From assembly GCA_021811635.1 (NCBI GenBank), contig JAJZNS010000064.1, positions 1-53,147 of the forward strand: 53,147 nt of DNA, in the 5' to 3' direction. Made by a program: the position numbers and the translations under genes. Shown here piece after piece: positions 26,518 to 50,707 of the stretch. Source of the DNA: Thermoplasmata archaeon (GTDB taxonomy: Archaea; Thermoplasmatota; Thermoplasmata; Thermoplasmatales; Thermoplasmataceae). The notes under the pieces were generated by a model. It was not told the DNA's origin, searched no databases, and saw only the letters and a list, made by a program, of their open reading frames with translations. Each line of letters begins with the position of its first letter. The stretch's first letter is position 1.

Positions 26518-28785
26518 TCACCTTCTCTTTCTCATGAACGCAAGCACCGATACGATAGCCACGGCCGATATCACTCCTCCAAATATTCCATATAGCTCAT
26601 CGGCAGGTATTCCAGATGCTGGGGATGATTTCTTGGCGGGAGAGAAAGTGATGGCCATTGATACGCTGTTGCCATTGACAGATATTGTACCAGACGAAGC
26701 CGAAACAGAATATCCCGAGACGTTACCGATGGTGAAAGAGTACGTTCCATTGGTAGCCGTGAATGCGATTGTACCTGCCGTTGATGATTTGTTCAATCCG
26801 CTGAAGTTCACATACCATGATGTGCCAGACGGAAGTCCTGTTTCAGAGAATGTTACAGTATACTTGAACTGGGAGAATGTTATGGGCACTGACACCGATC
26901 CTCCGTTAACTGTGAATGAACCTGAAGACGGCGCTGGACTGAATATCTTGTTGGATGAGGCAATCGAGTATGAATATGTTCCATTTGGTTCCTTTATGGA
27001 TATTGTACCGGATGTTGATGTGTAGGACAGACCGTTGCTAAGGTTGACATACCATGCTGCGCCTGCTGGGAGGCCCGATTCAGAGAATGATACGGTATAA
27101 TAAGACAGGGCCGTGCCGCCTTCCGGAATGTTTGTGGATGTAATGCTGCCAGTGATACTGCCAGTTGCATTTGTTTGATAAATAGCAATCAATACGCCAG
27201 AATACGTATCAAAGTAATAGGTCAAATCCTGTCCATTCTGTGAAAGAACCACTTTGTCCGTAAGAAATGTTCCATCAGGGGTGCTTATTTTCACCGAGGT
27301 GCTGATGCTGGCATTCGGGCCCAGTGGGCTGGTACCGTTGTTCAACTCCGATATCAGTCCCTTGCCGAGCCATATGGAAAAGTTATTCCAGTTGAGGTAC
27401 CCTGTTGTATTGTTTGTTGTCCCGGAAGCTGCACTTTGACTCGTTATTCTCAGTTCCACAGTATCGTTGCTCAGTTCGACGGCAATTGCCTGAACTGTCA
27501 GATTAACGCTGGAACTACTGCCTTTGTAGACTGCGGTGAAGCTGTATTTCCCGTAGGCGCCGACGAATGCCCACACTGGAGGAGCTGTAACCAAAGGAGT
27601 GAATTTGATGGTCTGGACGATGTTGCTCCCGCTGACAGTTATATTTCCGGACGATGGCATTTGTGTGTACCCGGTTACGTTACCTACAATGTACGAATAG
27701 GTTCCGTCCGCTACAGAGAAAGTTATTGTGCCAGAGTTGGATGATTCCGTGCTTCCATTAAGTGTCACGTACCATAAGGTTCCAGGCGGAAGATCCATTT
27801 CCGTGAAGTTTAAAAGATAATAGCCGCTCGGTGTGGACTTAGAAAAAGTTACCGCGACCGTCACATTGTTTCCTGCAACCTGGACGGATCCGCCGGATGG
27901 ATAAGCAAAGTATCCGCCTGGCACAGAAGTACTAAAGCTGTAGTACCACGTGTCATTAAATTCCGGCAGCGTATAATTTGCCATCGTAGCATAAACGGAA
28001 TTGAAAACGCCTTTGCTCTCCATCGTGGTATTTGCAATATTTATTTTCCAGATGCTGTTTGCAGGGAGGCCTGTTTCTGTAAAATTGATATTGTATGCCC
28101 TGATGAAATGAACGTATACTGTCATCGGCGACCCATTAATATTTAAATACTGATATGTCTGATCGGAATTGTTAAAATACGCGACGTAGCCGCTGTAGCC
28201 GCTGACAAACGGGCCAGCTGATACAATCCATGTCCCATTCACCAGGTTAAAAGCGGTCGTGTTGCTGGAAGTTATGTTGGACGAGCTTACATCATTATAG
28301 CTAAGGTCTGTTAAGGAAGACATCCATTCCATTCGCGAAGGAAGACCGTTCTCAATAAGAGTCACATCATACGTCTTGTTGAAGTAAACGTTGTAGGTCA
28401 GGTTACTGCCGCTGACAGTTACAGAATCAGGCCTCTGATTGGGAGTTGTCATGGTCACATTGCTCGCATAACCCACGCTGGCAGGGGTAAAAGAATAATT
28501 GCCGTTTGCCAACGTGAATTGAATTATGGTGGAATTAGAGCTCCCGTTTAACGTTACGAAACCTCCGGAACCATCTCCTCCAAGAGAAACATTCCACAGA
28601 TGCCCCGCAGGAAGTCCCGTCTCCCTAATGGTAAGAGTATAACCCCCCGATCCGCCCTGAAAAGGCAGATAACCTCCGGTTGAAGGTGAACCCCGGTTCG
28701 TATGCCCGCCTATCAATGCGAAAGATGCACCCAGAAGTGCGATTACTACAACCACGGAAAGGGCGTTAAACCCTATCCTTCTCAT
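26518..28785 (-). CDS. Large surface protein with repeated GLP-x-G-x-x-W domains
   Basis: This is an exported cell-surface protein. After a signal-like N-terminus (R-R-I-G-F-N-A-L-S-V-V-V-V-I-A-L-L-G-A) there are repeats of a beta-sandwich-like unit beginning with E-x-G-L-P-x-G-x-x-W. Six copies can be read (for example TETGLPANSIW, SESGLPAGAAW, SETGLPSGTSW), interrupted by a different beta-rich domain ending in Y-Y-F-D-T-Y-S-G-V-L-I-A-I. The C-terminus is one transmembrane helix followed by R-K-R-R, so the protein is anchored with its repeats outside. N-x-S/T sites are abundant. The frame is open to a TTG at 28869; the ATG at 28785 is preferred because it gives a clean signal peptide and suits a TATA-like AATATATT at about 28826-28834. 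Confidence 0.8.
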   Translation of the reverse strand: MRRIGFNALSVVVVIALLGASFALIGGHTNRGSPSTGGYLPFQGGSGGYTLTIRETGLPAGHLWNVSLGGDGSGGFVTLNGSSNSTIIQFTLANGNYSFTPASVGYASNVTMTTPNQRPDSVTVSGSNLTYNVYFNKTYDVTLIENGLPSRMEWMSSLTDLSYNDVSSSNITSSNTTAFNLVNGTWIVSAGPFVSGYSGYVAYFNNSDQTYQYLNINGSPMTVYVHFIRAYNINFTETGLPANSIWKINIANTTMESKGVFNSVYATMANYTLPEFNDTWYYSFSTSVPGGYFAYPSGGSVQVAGNNVTVAVTFSKSTPSGYYLLNFTEMDLPPGTLWYVTLNGSTESSNSGTITFSVADGTYSYIVGNVTGYTQMPSSGNITVSGSNIVQTIKFTPLVTAPPVWAFVGAYGKYSFTAVYKGSSSSVNLTVQAIAVELSNDTVELRITSQSAASGTTNNTTGYLNWNNFSIWLGKGLISELNNGTSPLGPNASISTSVKISTPDGTFLTDKVVLSQNGQDLTYYFDTYSGVLIAIYQTNATGSITGSITSTNIPEGGTALSYYTVSFSESGLPAGAAWYVNLSNGLSYTSTSGTISIKEPNGTYSYSIASSNKIFSPAPSSGSFTVNGGSVSVPITFSQFKYTVTFSETGLPSGTSWYVNFSGLNKSSTAGTIAFTATNGTYSFTIGNVSGYSVSASSGTISVNGNSVSMAITFSPAKKSSPASGIPADELYGIFGGVISAVAIVSVLAFMRKRR

Positions 28786-29012
28786 ACCATTTTTTCGATT
28801 TTCCACGCGAAAGGAAACCAGCGTGAATATATTAGTCGGTACGATACAAAAAGTGCTGTATTGTGACAAATATTATCAGAGGTAATTCCAGATTGGTTGT
28901 GCTCATCTCTCTATGAATGGTCAATTTATGATTGCAGGTATTTTCAGTCCTGTTCCTTCGGCTGACACTGGCTGTTTGAACTATCAATGAAATGATGTTC
29001 AATCCATTGGCT

Positions 29013-34709: not shown

Positions 34710-35972
34710 ATGAGATCACAGGGTAGAAAAGTTTACATGGTCTCGGGAGGAGTCACCAAGTTCGCCAAGGCCACTCCCGACATGGATTTTAGACTGAGAA
34801 CCAAGAAAGCATTCGACTATGCACTGAATGATGCCGGGATGTCCCTTAAGGATATAGACGGATCAGTAGCCTCATACTTCGCTGACCATTTCCAGCGGCA
34901 GCTTATGTCCGGCATCATGGCTCAGGATTACCTCGGGCTTGTACCGAAGCCGAGCAAGAGAGTTGAAGGCGGAGGTGCAACAGGCGGGCTAGCTTTTCAG
35001 GCAGGCTTTGAAGAGGTTTCATCCGGCAGAATGGACGTATGTGCTGTTTACGGCTTTGAAAGCATGTCCCATGTCAACACCTGGAAGGGAAACGAGTTCA
35101 TTGCGCTTGCGAGCGATACGAATTTCGACTATCCGGTCGGTGGCTTCTATACGGGGTATTATGCCATGATGGCAGTAAGGCATATGCATGAATTCGGGAC
35201 CACAGTAGAGCAGTTGGCAAAGGTGTCCATAAAGAACCATGGAAACGCCATGCACAACCCATATGCGCAGAGCCCCATGAAACTCACTGTAAAGGACGTT
35301 AGGAGTTCCCCAATGGTCGCCTATCCTCTCACCAGGCTGGACGTATGCGCCATGTCTGATGGGGCAGCGGTCGCCATACTGGCCGACGAAGAGAAGGCGT
35401 TTGAACTTTCGGACAACCCGGTACTGGTGAAGTCTATCGGGACTGGTACAGATACGATGAGGCTTTCTGACAGGCCGTTCCACAAGGTGCCTTTGCTTCC
35501 GAACGAGAAGGCTTCCGACTATGCAAACCTGAAGTATCCGGGAATTCATTCATTCAGGGCAGGAAGGTCTGCAGCAAAGGAGGCCTATGAGGCTGCAGGA
35601 ATCACGGACCCGCTTGAGGAGCTTGACCTGGTTGAACTGCATGACGCCTATACCTCATCCGAAATACAGACTTATGAGGATCTTGGCCTTTGCAAGTACG
35701 GCGAGGGTGGAAAATTCATCGAAGAGGGGAAGTCAGGGCTTCATGGCAAAGTAGCTGTAAACCCGTCCGGAGGTTTGCTTGCATGCGGCCACCCTGTTGG
35801 TGCCACCGGAATAATGCAGGCGGTCTTTATGTTCTGGCAGCTTCAGCATACAATAAAGAAGCACTTCGGCAATGATGCCCTTCAGGTAAGCAATGCGAGG
35901 AGAGGGCTCATTCACAGTCATGCAGGGACGGGAACGTATGTAACAGTATCAATTATGGAGGCGGTAAAATGA
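34710..35972 (+). CDS. Thiolase-family protein (SCP-x type), catalytic Cys replaced by Gly
   Basis: Thiolases condense or cleave acyl-CoA thioesters. The fold is clear across 420 residues: G-F-E-S-M-S-H-V, L-V-E-L-H-D-A-Y-T-S-S-E-I, G-G-L-L-A-C-G-H-P-V-G-A-T-G with His361, and the C-terminal H-A-G-T-G-T-Y-V-T-V. The N-terminal nucleophile motif, normally V-E-x-A-C-A-S-G, reads V85-E-G-G-G-A-T-G here, so the reactive Cys is Gly89. The protein may not be a normal thiolase. In archaea such genes pair with DUF35 partners and can act with HMG-CoA synthase in mevalonate synthesis. It overlaps the DUF35 gene by 4 nt. The start at 34710 is the first ATG that gives the family N-terminus. Confidence 0.88.
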   Translation: MRSQGRKVYMVSGGVTKFAKATPDMDFRLRTKKAFDYALNDAGMSLKDIDGSVASYFADHFQRQLMSGIMAQDYLGLVPKPSKRVEGGGATGGLAFQAGFEEVSSGRMDVCAVYGFESMSHVNTWKGNEFIALASDTNFDYPVGGFYTGYYAMMAVRHMHEFGTTVEQLAKVSIKNHGNAMHNPYAQSPMKLTVKDVRSSPMVAYPLTRLDVCAMSDGAAVAILADEEKAFELSDNPVLVKSIGTGTDTMRLSDRPFHKVPLLPNEKASDYANLKYPGIHSFRAGRSAAKEAYEAAGITDPLEELDLVELHDAYTSSEIQTYEDLGLCKYGEGGKFIEEGKSGLHGKVAVNPSGGLLACGHPVGATGIMQAVFMFWQLQHTIKKHFGNDALQVSNARRGLIHSHAGTGTYVTVSIMEAVK

Positions 35973-36484
35973 CAATAAATCCAAATGCAAAAATGGAAGA
36001 ATCCCAGGAGGGGACTGAGGTCTATAACATCGATCCACTGATAGTGAAATCCCATTACGAGATAGACTATATCCATAGCTATGCCCAGGACTCAAAGTTC
36101 TTCACCAGCCTTGGGAAGAGGAAGCTGATGGGAACGAAGTGCAAGAATCCCGATTGCGGTTGCGTGTATGCCACACCGAGAATGCACTGCATGGAGTGTG
36201 GATCTGAAACAGAGTGGATAGAACTTCCGAAGTCAGGCAGGATACATTCCTATACAACCTGCTACTTCGGCAGCGAGGCCTTTCTGTCGCAGACCCCATT
36301 CCACCTGATAATGGTGGAATTCGACGGGGTGGATTCCCTGTTCCTTGCAAGGCTCATAGGCGCAGACACTGAGGATCTGTATATAGGCATGCCAGTGGTC
36401 GCGAAATTCAAGAGGCTGCAGAGTTTTTCGCCTACCGATGTATACTTCGTTCCTTCCCCAGATGCCATGAAAGGCCGAAAATAA
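35969..36484 (+). CDS. DUF35 protein: zinc ribbon plus OB fold, acyl-CoA-binding partner
   Basis: This family pairs with thiolases and HMG-CoA synthase in archaea, where it is thought to help pass the acyl-CoA intermediate. The zinc ribbon has C-K-N-P-D-C-G-C and C-M-E-C-G (about 54-77). The OB-fold follows, from about 80 to 160, with F-G-S-E-A-F-L-S-Q-T-P-F-H-L-I-M-V-E-F-D-G. The start overlaps the stop of the thiolase by 4 nt (ATGA), so the two are translated as a coupled pair. An N-terminal extension of about 30 residues precedes the ribbon. Confidence 0.9.
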   Translation: MTINPNAKMEESQEGTEVYNIDPLIVKSHYEIDYIHSYAQDSKFFTSLGKRKLMGTKCKNPDCGCVYATPRMHCMECGSETEWIELPKSGRIHSYTTCYFGSEAFLSQTPFHLIMVEFDGVDSLFLARLIGADTEDLYIGMPVVAKFKRLQSFSPTDVYFVPSPDAMKGRK

Positions 36485-37502: not shown

Positions 37503-37605
37503 GTAGTCGCATATCTCTTACCAATCAATAATGATTTCTGTTATCTGCTGGTTGCAGCATCCAGGAGAACCGCTAACGGTTTATCTTGGGGCTGCATGCC
37601 AGAAC

Positions 37606-38475
37606 ATGAGATTTGCCAATGTTTTAATCGAAGGAGCGCCGCACCTGATCCTGTCGGAAGGAACCAGCATATCCCTGGTAAGATCCGTACGCGGGATCGA
37701 GTTGACCACCACGGATGAGTTGCTTGCTCTTCCGGATCAAGGATTTAACAAATCTGAACTTGATTTGGAGTCAATTCCAGGAGAAACGGCGCTGAAATAC
37801 AGACCATCTGTTGTTTCACCGGAAAAAATCATCCTGGCAGCCGTAAATTACAGGTCTCACAGCAGGGAAAACAGGCGTTCTGATCTCACTTCCCCATACT
37901 TCTTCGGCAGGTTCCGGAACTCGCTTATAGGTCCGTTTGACGATCTTGTCCTGCCAAGGAACTCCATAAAGATTGACTGGGAGGCTGAACTATCGGTCAT
38001 CATAGGTAAGAAGGGAAAGTACATCAGCAGTTCATCTGCCATGGAATACATCGCAGGATACAGTATTTCCAATGACTTTTCATGGCGTGAGCAGCAGATG
38101 GAAGTTTTCAAGGGACAGGGGATGGGATCGCACTGGTATACAGGAAAGTCTTTTGACGCGTCCTTTCCACTTGGTCCATACCTGGTGACCCAGGACGATA
38201 TTGGCGATCCTGGCAATCTTGCAATACGGCTGAGCGTAAACGGGAAGACAATGCAGGACGGCAGTTCCAGCGACATGATTTTTGATATTCCCGCACTTGT
38301 AGAGAAGGCCAGCGTTGGAATCACGCTGCAACCCGGAGATGTGATTTCCACGGGAACTCCTTCCGGTGTAGCATATTTCAGCGGAAAACCATTCATAAAG
38401 GCAGGTGACAGGATCAGAACCGAGATTGAAGGGATCGGACACCTCGAAAATGTTGCCAGGGCGGAATATGCATGA
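37606..38475 (+). CDS. Fumarylacetoacetate hydrolase-family enzyme
   Basis: FAH-family enzymes hydrolyse or decarboxylate 2,4-diketo acids, often at the end of aromatic degradation, using a divalent metal. The metal-binding acidic residues are visible in D-W-E-A-E-L-S-V-I-I-G and S-N-D-F-S. The fold also shows K-S-F-D-A-S-F-P-L-G-P-Y and I-S-T-G-T-P-S-G-V-A-Y. The frame is open to 37531, but the ATG at 37606 matches the family N-terminus and has a TATA-like TTTATC about 24 nt upstream, giving a leaderless start. The bat-type gene lies divergently upstream and a glyoxalase-fold gene downstream, which would suit a small catabolic island. Confidence 0.87.
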   Translation: MRFANVLIEGAPHLILSEGTSISLVRSVRGIELTTTDELLALPDQGFNKSELDLESIPGETALKYRPSVVSPEKIILAAVNYRSHSRENRRSDLTSPYFFGRFRNSLIGPFDDLVLPRNSIKIDWEAELSVIIGKKGKYISSSSAMEYIAGYSISNDFSWREQQMEVFKGQGMGSHWYTGKSFDASFPLGPYLVTQDDIGDPGNLAIRLSVNGKTMQDGSSSDMIFDIPALVEKASVGITLQPGDVISTGTPSGVAYFSGKPFIKAGDRIRTEIEGIGHLENVARAEYA

Positions 38476-49729: not shown

Positions 49730-50707
49730 ATGGTCAAGATTTCCACTATCAAGTTTCATAGCCAGATTTTGCAGACAAACCCACTGCATGATCCATATGA
49801 TCGCGATGTCCTGATAGTATCCCCCGATGCGCCCAAGCAGAATGCGCCTTTACTTATTGGCTTGCCTGGTTTCGGGGCCTCGATATCGACAATGCGCAAC
49901 GAGGGACCATTTTCCCAGAGCGTTGTGTCACTCGTTTCTGATCTCTCATCCAAAGGATTGCTCAAAGATGCGGTTGTCGCGATACCGGATACCGTCACAA
50001 AGTACGGCGGAAACCACTACCTGAATAGCGAATCTGTTGGAATGTACGAGACCTTCATCATAGAGGAGCTCATTCCTAAACTGAAATCAGATTTCAATTC
50101 AGGGCTTGTGGGACTGTTTGGGAAGGATGCAGGAGCTTTCGGTGCTTACATGCTTGCTGTCAGAAATGCAGGGAACATAAACGCATTCGCAAGCCATTCC
50201 GCGGACATGGGCTTTGAATATTTTTTCATCCCCGATTTCCCGGAAATCATGGGGGCAATAAGGCAAATGAGCGGGGTTGACAAGTGGCTGGCAAAGTTCT
50301 GGTCCTCCAAGAACAGGCTCTCGTCATCGAAGCTGAAGGTCCTCAGAACCATAGAAACGGCAGCGTTTTTCAGCCCAAATCCATCATCTGCTGAGGGGGG
50401 GTCTGATCTCCCGTTCGACTGGGAATCGGGGGAATTCAAGTCGGAAGTATGGAAGCTCTGGGAGGAAAAGGATCCTGCCAGAAATTGCCTTTCCTATGCA
50501 AGGCAGCTGGAATCGCTGCACTTCTCCTATTTCGACGTAGGTATAATGGACGAGTTCCAGCTGGTGTGGGGGCACAGGACCCTCGAAAAGAAGCTAAATG
50601 ATGCGGGAATCAAGTTCACCTATGAAGAGTATGAGGATGGGCACTTCGGCCTGAACTACAGGCTTGAGAGGTCGCTGCCTGCCATGGCCAGTGCTCTCGT
50701 TTCATGA
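49730..50707 (+). CDS. Alpha/beta hydrolase, esterase-D-like, nucleophile Ser replaced by Asp
   Basis: The protein has the fold of putative esterases (esterase D/antigen 85 group). It opens with strands leading to P-L-L-I-G-L-P-G-F-G-A (oxyanion-side loop), then L-V-G-L-F-G-K-D-A-G-A-F-G-A-Y, where G-x-S-x-G is expected: Asp133 replaces Ser. A later Asp near 274 (G-I-M-D-E) and His305 (E-D-G-H-F-G-L-N-Y-R) complete a possible triad. A nucleophilic Asp is typical of haloalkane dehalogenases and epoxide hydrolases in the wider superfamily, so the reaction may be other than ester hydrolysis, or the protein may be inactive. It is convergent with the next SDR gene, overlapping it by 6 nt. Confidence 0.75.
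   Translation: MVKISTIKFHSQILQTNPLHDPYDRDVLIVSPDAPKQNAPLLIGLPGFGASISTMRNEGPFSQSVVSLVSDLSSKGLLKDAVVAIPDTVTKYGGNHYLNSESVGMYETFIIEELIPKLKSDFNSGLVGLFGKDAGAFGAYMLAVRNAGNINAFASHSADMGFEYFFIPDFPEIMGAIRQMSGVDKWLAKFWSSKNRLSSSKLKVLRTIETAAFFSPNPSSAEGGSDLPFDWESGEFKSEVWKLWEEKDPARNCLSYARQLESLHFSYFDVGIMDEFQLVWGHRTLEKKLNDAGIKFTYEEYEDGHFGLNYRLERSLPAMASALVS

What the first reader, a model, noticed from the sequence alone, without database searches (positions are those of the whole stretch)
34710..36484. Thiolase-DUF35 pair in which the thiolase lacks its nucleophilic cysteine
The N-terminal active-site motif reads V-E-G-G-G-A-T-G, placing Gly89 where thiolases need Cys, while His361 and the rest of the fold are kept. 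The 4-nt coupling with a DUF35 acyl-CoA-binding partner suggests an obligate complex. It could be a non-thiolytic acyl-CoA binder, a scaffold for another thiolase, or an enzyme with new chemistry.
Basis: partly seen in the sequence, partly recalled or inferred. Interest (0 to 1): 0.7.

Follow-up and report, generated by a model that had tools for sequence, protein, structure and literature searches.

The report
Cysteine-less thiolase paired with DUF35
A widespread archaeal and bacterial protein that databases call a thiolase has replaced the cysteine it would need for that job with an unvarying glycine while keeping much of the rest of its active site, which suggests that it splits carbon chains by another chemistry, probably an aldolase step in branched-acid breakdown.

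Summary
Confirmed: window 34710-35972 encodes an SCP2-type thiolase-fold protein with Gly89 where thiolases carry the nucleophilic Cys; it overlaps a DUF35 gene (35969-36484) by 4 nt. It is no error or isolated variant: Gly89 is invariant in 121 of 121 aligned homologues and 80 genome loci, in all four Gly codons. His361 is 121/121; His311 118/121, otherwise Tyr. Known relatives are built this way: the DUF35-bound retro-aldolases Ltp2 and Sal (PMC12329534). Our protein forms a separate clade; its grouping with those aldolases is best in four rooted trees, strongly supported in one. A paralogue in a sibling genome sits in a ligase/MaoC hydratase/Gly-thiolase/DUF35 operon, the aldolase arrangement. 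Some bacterial members lie beside isobutyryl-CoA-mutase-like B12 mutases or acyl-CoA dehydrogenases. Best reading: a retro-aldolase of beta-hydroxyacyl-CoA in branched acyl-CoA catabolism, using His311/His361 where Ltp2 uses Tyr/Tyr. Activity is untested and the substrate is inferred. In passing: the thiolase beside HMG-CoA synthase lacks its Cys in 26 of 30 Thermoplasmatota genomes read.

The parts
34710..35972 (+). thiolase-fold protein (420 aa) without nucleophilic Cys; NCBIfam NF004982 (PRK06365.1, thiolase domain-containing protein)
34974..34976 (+). codon of Gly89 (GGT) at the position of the thiolase nucleophilic Cys
   Evidence: 121/121 aligned homologues Gly, 80 of 80 motif matches in loci Gly, by four codons
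35640..35642 (+). codon of His311 (HDAY motif), aligned with the catalytic Tyr of Ltp2/Sal (YDHF/YDCY)
   Evidence: 118 His, 3 Tyr of 121; Tyr also in L148, L149, L150; alignments
35790..35792 (+). codon of His361 (GHPVG), aligned with Gln352 of CtSal and Tyr344 (general acid) of TcLtp2
   Evidence: 121/121 His; alignments; numbering from PMC12329534
35913..35921 (+). His402-Ser403-His404 (HSHAGTG), a loop where the SCP2-type thiolases compared read for example HNVGGTG, HNMAGTG or QNIGGTG
   Evidence: His402 118/119, His404 119/119; motif table
35969..35972 (+). ATGA overlap coupling the two genes
   Evidence: such an overlap in 45 of 50 Thermoplasmata loci
35969..36484 (+). DUF35 / ChsH2-type partner (171 aa): zinc ribbon plus OB fold
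   Evidence: OB_ChsH2_C 46.5 bits; matches 6esq_E, 3irb_A, 6ok1_B, 9myr_B; a DUF35 ORF was found somewhere in 76 of 81 loci including the window
36140..36199 (+). four-Cys zinc ribbon of the DUF35 protein (Cys58, Cys63, Cys74, Cys77)
   Evidence: sequence; a C-x(n)-C-x(n)-C-x2-C pattern was found in each of the 76 DUF35 ORFs listed

Best explanation
The two genes encode a thiolase-fold/DUF35 complex, probably obligate, that breaks (or makes) a C-C bond in a CoA thioester without a covalent acyl-enzyme: an aldolase/retro-aldolase acting on a beta-hydroxyacyl-CoA, not a thiolase. Proposed mechanism: the DUF35 OB/zinc-ribbon subunit binds beside the thiolase-fold dimer and shapes the acyl-CoA site (inferred from Ltp2 and Sal). 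Gly89 replaces the nucleophilic Cys and leaves room for, and a backbone NH to hold, the beta-hydroxyl of the substrate (proposed from modelling for CtSal in PMC12329534, inferred here). His311, in the place of the Tyr base of Ltp2/Sal, takes the proton from the beta-hydroxyl; the C-C bond breaks to give an aldehyde or ketone and an acyl-CoA enolate; His361, in the place of the Tyr344 acid of Ltp2, returns a proton to the enolate (both roles inferred). Physiological role (inferred, weaker): degradation of branched-chain acyl-CoA, where a beta-carbon bearing a methyl group cannot be oxidised to a ketone for thiolysis; the most economical candidate is 3-hydroxyisovaleryl-CoA (leucine/isovalerate) to acetone plus acetyl-CoA. 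Shown here: the sequence facts, the conservation, the kinship, the gene neighbourhoods. Not shown: any activity.
For: (1) Gly89 is invariant, 121/121, 80 of 80 motif matches with four codons, while the rest of the site is kept: Glu86, Gly88, Tyr147, Tyr151, His177, Asp312, Asn351, His361 121/121; His402 118/119; His404 119/119. (2) Characterised thiolase-fold proteins with a Gly there and a DUF35 partner are retro-aldolases: CtSal/Shy and TcLtp2/ChsH2 (PMC12329534). All 27 aldolase-like rows compared (25 Chloroflexota proteins, L083, 4U4E) have Gly at this position; one reads NGGGATAG against EGGGATGG here (L226). (3) His311 aligns with their catalytic Tyr and is Tyr in 3 of 121 homologues and in the three Ferroplasma-like loci L148-L150, so the two residues interchange inside this family. 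His361 has His as counterpart in 13, Tyr in 13 and Gln in 1 of the 27 aldolase-like rows. (4) A paralogue in the sister lineage (L094; also Gly) lies in an operon AMP-ligase - MaoC hydratase - Gly-thiolase - DUF35 - AMP-ligase in L044, and the same order is seen in L205 (by eye); Sal is likewise tied to a MaoC hydratase through the DUF35 of Shy (for Ltp2 this is recalled). (5) The four rooted trees put the Gly clade beside the aldolase group: 97/88, 84/81 and 57/84, 73/79. (6) Neighbourhoods: in 30 loci outside Thermoplasmata, same strand within 6 kb, DUF35 in 25, acyl-CoA dehydrogenase in 17, B12-mutase small subunit in 11 and large subunit in 8, E1-alpha in 1; in 18 further loci (one of them, L158, is the same contig as L054) DUF35 10, acyl-CoA dehydrogenase 8 (5 + 3 by two seeds), mutase large 5, E1/E2 1. 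(7) At least one mutase of the Phe/Gln (isobutyryl-CoA mutase-like, recalled criterion) type in 10 of 10 carrier genomes and in 14 of 15 carriers; a published isobutyrate degrader uses an isobutyryl-CoA mutase cluster for that rearrangement (PMC5017805, passages).
Against: The base and acid of the known aldolases (Tyr/Tyr in Ltp2, Tyr/Cys in Sal) are not present: position 311 is Tyr in 27 of 27 aldolase-like rows but His in 118 of 121 here; His311 and His361 are what ordinary SCP2-type thiolases carry, so their retention is no proof of aldolase chemistry. With motif columns left out, support for the grouping with aldolases is not strong in any of three trees. In the 51 Thermoplasmata loci (window included) the pair has hardly any catabolic neighbours: FAA hydrolase in 7, EtfA/B in 1, AMP-ligase in 1; the usual neighbours there, ThyX, a thermosome and SucCD, are syntenic but functionally mixed. 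No MaoC hydratase lies near the pair: a MaoC seed found only the paralogue operon of L044 in the window and 98 loci (E 1e-6). Enoyl-CoA hydratase matches occur in only 5 of those 99 sequences (L051, L075, L151, L161, L163). Five of 81 loci had no DUF35 ORF detected; three end just behind the thiolase gene, but L054 and L076 do not; in L074 it is 7 kb away. The Phe/Gln mutase also occurs in at least 10 of 20 genomes without the Gly protein, and carrier G053 had no mutase hit. HMG-CoA lyase gave no match at E 1e-60 in 32 of 32 carriers but also in 63 of 64 non-carriers, so that absence says nothing. A carboxylating leucine route is possible in some carriers: a carboxyltransferase-like gene lies near L051 and PF01039 rings in 18 of 32. 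NCBIfam names the neighbouring E1-alpha a pyruvate dehydrogenase, not a branched-chain one. The acetone product would need a sink that I did not look for.
Confidence: 0.48

Rival explanations
1. Catalytically dead scaffold: the thiolase fold has lost activity and only holds DUF35 (and perhaps another enzyme) in place.
For: Both thiolase Cys are gone. In the same phylum another DUF35-linked thiolase, the one next to HMG-CoA synthase, has lost its Cys in 26 of 30 genomes read and its GHP His in 18 of 30, so dead thiolase subunits of DUF35 complexes are plausible here.
Against: The HMG-CoA-synthase-linked protein varies at the Cys position (Thr 9, Asp 9, Ser 4, Cys 4, Gly 3, Glu 1), whereas here Gly is 121/121 and the His residues are nearly all invariant; 170 of 420 positions are at least 98.5% identical across the 121 archaeal and bacterial proteins. 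The pair also sits beside different partner enzymes in different genomes, which a dedicated scaffold would be less likely to do.
Confidence: 0.16
2. Another noncovalent CoA-thioester reaction in the thiolase fold: beta-ketoacyl-CoA hydrolysis (water instead of Cys), decarboxylation of a malonyl-type CoA, or acyl/formyl transfer to an acceptor held in the site, as in the DUF35-bound PhlABC acylases.
Against: The acylases seem to keep a Cys at this place (an entry title names a C88S variant). CtSal showed no malonyl-CoA decarboxylation. The paralogue operon with a MaoC hydratase points to a beta-hydroxyacyl substrate.
Confidence: 0.22
3. An aldolase, but acting on other substrates than leucine-derived ones, for example 2-methyl-3-hydroxyacyl-CoA (isoleucine, giving propionyl-CoA plus an aldehyde), or a biosynthetic aldol addition. 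(This overlaps with the best explanation in its chemistry.)
For: The mutase, ligase and acyl-CoA dehydrogenase neighbours would fit isobutyryl-, 2-methylbutyryl- or isovaleryl-CoA alike; Thermoplasmata keep the pair with hardly any catabolic neighbours.
Against: Straight-chain or 2-methyl substrates can be handled by ordinary Cys thiolases, which some of these genomes have, so they would need no aldolase.
Confidence: 0.3
4. An ordinary thiolase that uses another Cys (Cys213, Cys328 or Cys359).
For: Cys213 and Cys328 are invariant in 121 homologues.
Against: Cys328 has a counterpart in thiolases that also carry the canonical Cys; Cys359, two residues from His361, is Cys in only 69 of 121; the HDCF Cys is Ala here.
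Confidence: 0.04

Closest known systems
Ltp2-ChsH2(DUF35) steroid aldolase (TcLtp2, PDB 6OK1) and Sal-Shy(DUF35) bile acid aldolase (CtSal, PDB 9MYR)
   Different: 22-24% identity; His311 instead of Tyr (base), Ala313 instead of His/Cys, His361 instead of Tyr344/Gln352; separate clade (99/97); short acyl-CoA neighbours, no steroid genes noticed
Acetoacetyl-CoA thiolase of the archaeal HMG-CoA synthase/DUF35 complex (PDB 6ESQ, NCBIfam NF053570)
   Different: Cys to Gly and HDCF to HDAY; no HMG-CoA synthase in the window (in sibling genomes the synthase has its own thiolase-like gene); NF053570 score 270 vs cut-off 600
Benzoylsuccinyl-CoA thiolase BbsAB (PDB 7PXP)
   Same: thiolase plus DUF35 (DUF35 part recalled); HDAF motif also lacks the second Cys
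   Different: keeps the nucleophilic Cys (SACSAG); 29-32% identity
Trypanosoma brucei SCP2-thiolase-like protein TbSLP (PDB 5AB4-5AB7)
   Same: thiolase fold without the thiolase cysteines, proposed by others to be an aldolase (PMC12329534)
   Different: no DUF35, YDCF motif (PMC12329534), 20-22% identity
NCBIfam NF004982 / PRK06365.1 'thiolase domain-containing protein'
   Same: our protein is a member (788 bits, cut-off 695)
   Different: the name asserts no function; some source records call members acetyl-CoA C-acetyltransferase, which the missing Cys contradicts

Membership tests
SCP2-type thiolase (acetyl-CoA C-acyltransferase) | thiolase fold | tested here: met
SCP2-type thiolase (acetyl-CoA C-acyltransferase) | nucleophilic Cys in the N-terminal half | tested here: not met
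   Gly89, 121/121
SCP2-type thiolase (acetyl-CoA C-acyltransferase) | second catalytic Cys (HDCF) | tested here: not met
   HDAY; Ala 116, Ser 5 of 121; note that BbsB and 7YVY also lack it
Ltp2/Sal-type DUF35 aldolase | Gly instead of nucleophilic Cys | tested here: met
   Gly in 27 of 27 aldolase-like rows; PMC12329534
Ltp2/Sal-type DUF35 aldolase | DUF35 (ChsH2-type) partner subunit | tested here: met
   OB_ChsH2_C over cut-off, gene overlap; binding itself is not tested
Ltp2/Sal-type DUF35 aldolase | catalytic Tyr of the YDxx motif | tested here: not met
   His311; Tyr in 27 of 27 aldolase-like rows but only in 3 of 121 here and in L148-L150
Ltp2/Sal-type DUF35 aldolase | inside the Ltp2/Sal clade | tested here: not met
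   own clade 99/97 outside the aldolase group 100/99; sister position favoured but weakly supported
Ltp2/Sal-type DUF35 aldolase | linked MaoC hydratase | tested here: not met
   a MaoC seed finds none in the window or beside the pair in 98 loci (E 1e-6); one lies in the paralogue operon
Ltp2/Sal-type DUF35 aldolase | retro-aldol activity on a beta-hydroxyacyl-CoA | not testable with these tools
   needs an assay
Archaeal HMG-CoA synthase/thiolase/DUF35 complex | adjacent HMG-CoA synthase gene | tested here: not met
   an archaeal HMG-CoA synthase seed has no match in the window or in 98 loci; in sibling genomes the synthase has another thiolase-like partner
NCBIfam NF004982 (PRK06365.1) | score over the curated cut-off of 695 bits | tested here: met
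   788.3 bits

The most novel reading that the evidence does not exclude
A third, so far uncharacterised lineage of thiolase-fold aldolases, with a His-His pair in place of the Tyr-Tyr or Tyr-Cys pairs, gives acidophilic archaea and several bacterial phyla a carboxylase-free and thiolase-free way to cleave branched (3-methyl-3-hydroxy) acyl-CoA, for example leucine-derived 3-hydroxyisovaleryl-CoA into acetone and acetyl-CoA, alongside B12-dependent rearrangement of the other branched acyl-CoAs.
Probability: 0.2. Interest if true: 0.75.

Novelty: new variant of a known kind. Interest (0 to 1): 0.52.

Why it matters
The family is large: 501 of 552 pattern-matching stretches of public genome contigs encode a relative (the best 80 were kept and read, and the 501 may include other thiolases). 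Some of its members carry names such as acetyl-CoA C-acetyltransferase that the active site contradicts, so metabolic models of these archaea and bacteria can assign it the wrong reaction. If it is an aldolase, it extends the Ltp2/Sal chemistry from steroids to small branched acids, offers a C-C lyase/synthase from thermo-acidophiles, and makes the fate of branched-chain amino acids in Thermoplasmata testable with one assay. The comparison with the HMG-CoA-synthase-linked thiolase contrasts a Cys lost with the active site kept and a Cys lost with the active site varying.

Tried and rejected
Absence of HMG-CoA lyase as evidence for a replaced leucine route: no match at E 1e-60 in 32 of 32 carriers, but a match in only 1 of 64 non-carriers; not discriminating, dropped. 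Absence of carboxyltransferase (PF01039): none in 14 of 19 archaeal carriers but present in the other 5 and in all 13 remaining carriers (18 of 32 ring overall); suggestive only. Co-occurrence with the Phe/Gln mutase: 14 of 15 carriers vs at least 10 of 20 non-carriers (a further non-carrier, G022, has an odd 34%-identical match with the same two letters, and G021 was not typed); one-directional and weak, kept only as context. The Phe/Gln versus Tyr/Arg reading of mutase substrate (positions Tyr89/Arg207 of methylmalonyl-CoA mutase) is recalled; the paper that would document it is not held, and NCBIfam did not name these mutases as isobutyryl-CoA mutase over a cut-off. Thermoplasmata neighbours ThyX, thermosome and SucCD looked at first like an operon but are only conserved synteny. 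A first impression that the neighbouring E1/E2 genes are branched-chain-specific was toned down. A first label of 4YZO as an Ignicoccus protein (recalled) was wrong: it is ST0096 of Sulfolobus tokodaii. The pdb_via list is a re-alignment of Foldseek's matches only; nothing is concluded from absences in it. The model is weak (pLDDT under 50) at 123-149 and 201-213, which include conserved residues such as Tyr147. Literature: ten searches listed no paper in the held library that, by title and start of abstract, describes this clade or the Cys loss in the Thermoplasmatota HMG-CoA-synthase-linked thiolase; subscription papers are mostly not covered.

Rows left out before counts: the 121 are the query and the 120 listed of 7298 hits. 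For one search I used 9 of the 121 family proteins, left out the eight orthologues (L087, L088, L096-L101) and the classical thiolases L103 and L105 (added); the hits L102 and L104 gave no row. For one search I left out ten rows: five near-copies of the L218 type, two of the L231 type, and the PDB fragments 9MYR, 6OK1 and 4U4E. In one search, 30 of the 35 matching genomes were read, because no more than 30 loci are given.

Full report
What is there. Window 34710-35972 (+) encodes a 420-residue thiolase-fold protein and 35969-36484 (+) a 171-residue DUF35 protein; they overlap by ATGA. The first protein is a member of NCBIfam NF004982 (788.3 bits, cut-off 695); the second carries the ChsH2-type OB fold and a four-Cys zinc ribbon. 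The nearest named locus, L044 (Thermoplasmata archaeon YP2.bin70), is 98% identical in the protein and about 90% identical and syntenic over most of window 30.9-45.8 kb, so the window is very probably from a Thermoplasmata archaeon.

The missing Cys is real and fixed. Gly89 stands under the nucleophilic Cys of archaeal thiolases (VEAACASG in 6ESQ). It is Gly in 121 of 121 aligned proteins (query plus the 120 listed of 7298 hits) and in 80 of 80 motif matches in loci L001-L080, written GGA 35, GGC 19, GGT 16, GGG 10. The second thiolase Cys is also absent: the motif is HDAY, with Ala 116 and Ser 5 of 121 at its third place. Other parts of the site are kept: His361 121/121, His311 118/121 (Tyr in 3), Asn351 121/121, His402 118/119, His404 119/119. 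A 4-nt stop-start overlap recurs in 45 of 50 Thermoplasmata loci. The two remaining invariant cysteines, 213 and 328, do not look like substitutes: position 328 is also Cys in thiolases that have the canonical nucleophile.

Known proteins that work like this. CtSal and TcLtp2 are thiolase-fold retro-aldolases bound to DUF35 domains; CtSal has a Gly where thiolases have the nucleophile, and the paper concludes that it cannot thiolyse (PMC12329534: abstract, passages and first part of the Discussion read). Their catalytic residues are Tyr302/Cys304 in CtSal and Tyr294/Tyr344 in TcLtp2. By the printed alignments and the paper's numbering, His311 here lies under Tyr302/Tyr294, His361 under Gln352/Tyr344 and Ala313 under Cys304. 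So both acid-base positions used by Ltp2 are occupied by His here. His311 is Tyr in three of 121 homologues and in the three Ferroplasma-like loci, so the family itself exchanges the two. Twenty-five Ltp2/Sal-like proteins from Chloroflexota genomes, with L083 and 4U4E, have Gly at the place of Gly89 in 27 of 27, Tyr at the place of His311 in 27 of 27, and His 13, Tyr 13, Gln 1 at the place of His361; the closest Ltp2 relative, L212 (402 bits to the TcLtp2 fragment), reads HHGGGAACA and L226 reads NGGGATAGM. The Gly therefore agrees with the aldolases, the residue at 311 does not.

Trees. Sixteen Gly proteins (nine of the family, five divergent members, two paralogues) form one clade in the four builds whose support was printed: 100/96, 99/96, 98/97 (first tree), 99/97. 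Rooted on four classical thiolases, the clade groups with the Sal/Ltp2 group: 97/88 with all columns; with the active-site columns removed 84/81, and 57/84 without the two C-terminal fragments; 73/79 with 19 full-length aldolase-like rows. The grouping is favoured, not shown; a single loss of Cys for both groups is possible but not proven.

Neighbourhoods. In 51 Thermoplasmata loci (the window included) the pair stands among ThyX (32 loci), thermosome (23) and SucCD genes or, in 7, a FAA-hydrolase gene, with no clear pathway signal. Outside them, in 30 loci within 6 kb and on the same strand: DUF35 25, acyl-CoA dehydrogenase 17, mutase small subunit 11, mutase large subunit 8, AMP-ligase 6, metallo-beta-lactamase-fold 4, EtfA 3, EtfB 3, MeaB 3, CoA transferase 2, E1-alpha 1; in 18 further loci from more distant genomes: DUF35 10, acyl-CoA dehydrogenase 8, mutase large 5, 3-hydroxyacyl-CoA dehydrogenase 4, mutase small 3, E1-alpha/E1-beta/E2 1. 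Several of these loci are close relatives and L158 is the same contig as L054, so the counts are not independent events; the seeds also miss distant DUF35 partners (L151 and L161 have DUF35-like genes by eye). In L148 and L150 the acyl-CoA dehydrogenase gene overlaps the thiolase gene, and in L149 it abuts it. In L159 the order is Gly-thiolase, DUF35, E1-alpha, E1-beta, E2, 3-hydroxyacyl-CoA dehydrogenase; in L065 mutase, lactamase-fold protein, Gly-thiolase, DUF35, E1-alpha. At least one mutase carries Phe/Gln at the two substrate-defining positions (recalled numbering) in 10 of 10 carriers and 14 of 15; but at least 10 of 20 non-carriers also have that type. No MaoC or HMG-CoA synthase gene was found near the pair, and enoyl-CoA hydratase matches occur in 5 of 99 sequences. 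The common theme, where there is one, is short or branched acyl-CoA catabolism. A paper on syntrophic branched-chain fatty acid degraders assigns isobutyrate rearrangement to an isobutyryl-CoA mutase cluster (PMC5017805, passages).

The paralogue. L044 carries, in a stretch absent from the syntenic place of the window, a second Gly-thiolase (L094; TTGGATGG, 39% identical) in an operon AMP-ligase, MaoC hydratase (PF01575, 88 bits), Gly-thiolase, DUF35 (33.5 bits), AMP-ligase; the same order is seen by eye in G002 (L205). A hydratase that makes beta-hydroxyacyl-CoA next to a Gly-thiolase and DUF35 is the Sal/Shy arrangement (and, recalled, that of Ltp2 with ChsH1-ChsH2). This is the best single hint on the chemistry of the sister lineage; for the pair of the window itself no such neighbour exists.

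Scaffold or catalyst. The archaeal HMG-CoA synthase operon (synthase - thiolase - DUF35) in Thermoplasmatota gave an unplanned control. In the 30 genomes whose synthase locus was read (of 35 with a match among 39 searched), a thiolase-like gene lies beside the synthase in 30 of 30; its Cys position reads Thr 9, Asp 9, Ser 4, Cys 4, Gly 3, Glu 1, and the GHP His is kept in 12 of 30. That is what decay of an active site, or a switch to scaffolding, could look like. The protein of this finding shows the opposite: one residue fixed and the His set kept. It is therefore more likely a working enzyme with changed chemistry.

Judgement. Observation confirmed. Most likely a DUF35-bound CoA-thioester aldolase/retro-aldolase with a His-His acid-base pair, probably in branched acyl-CoA breakdown (0.48 for the whole statement; the substrate is the weakest part). 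It is a new variant of a known kind: on present evidence it works like Ltp2/Sal, but it lies outside their clade and lacks their catalytic Tyr. I found no report of an activity of this clade in the held library (ten searches, listed under tried and rejected).

Noticed in passing
L242-L271 (HMG-CoA synthase loci of 30 Thermoplasmatota genomes), also L237-L240: The thiolase-like gene beside archaeal HMG-CoA synthase (three synthases named by NCBIfam TIGR00748) lacks the nucleophilic Cys in 26 of 30 genomes read and the GHP His in 18 of 30. The thiolase of the synthase/DUF35 complex may thus be a pseudo-enzyme in many Thermoplasmatota, with acetoacetyl-CoA made by a separate classical Cys thiolase (L103, L105).
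   Followed up: partly
L044:349-5579 and L205:5366-10597: Operon AMP-ligase - MaoC hydratase - second Gly-thiolase - DUF35 - AMP-ligase in the sibling genome (annotated by Pfam in L044, by eye in L205), absent from the window at the syntenic place (between about 30.1 and 30.9 kb).
   Followed up: yes
window 37531-38475: Fumarylacetoacetate-hydrolase-family gene downstream of the pair, same strand, in 7 of 51 Thermoplasmata loci.
   Followed up: no
L065:7484-8320, L074:3695-4537, L051:6792-7799, L076: A metallo-beta-lactamase-fold protein (PF00753 for L074) recurs within 6 kb of the Gly-thiolase in four loci; function unknown.
   Followed up: no
L161, L163 (divergent Gly-thiolases): Neighbours are another B12 mutase type (33-34% identical), acyl-CoA and 3-hydroxyacyl-CoA dehydrogenases, an enoyl-CoA-hydratase-like gene and, in L161, a 1265-residue protein resembling an indolepyruvate-type oxidoreductase (by eye), hinting at a second substrate range.
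   Followed up: no
window 26518-28869 (-) and 49730-50707 (+): Long ORFs (783 and 325 aa) without any Pfam match at E 0.001.
   Followed up: no
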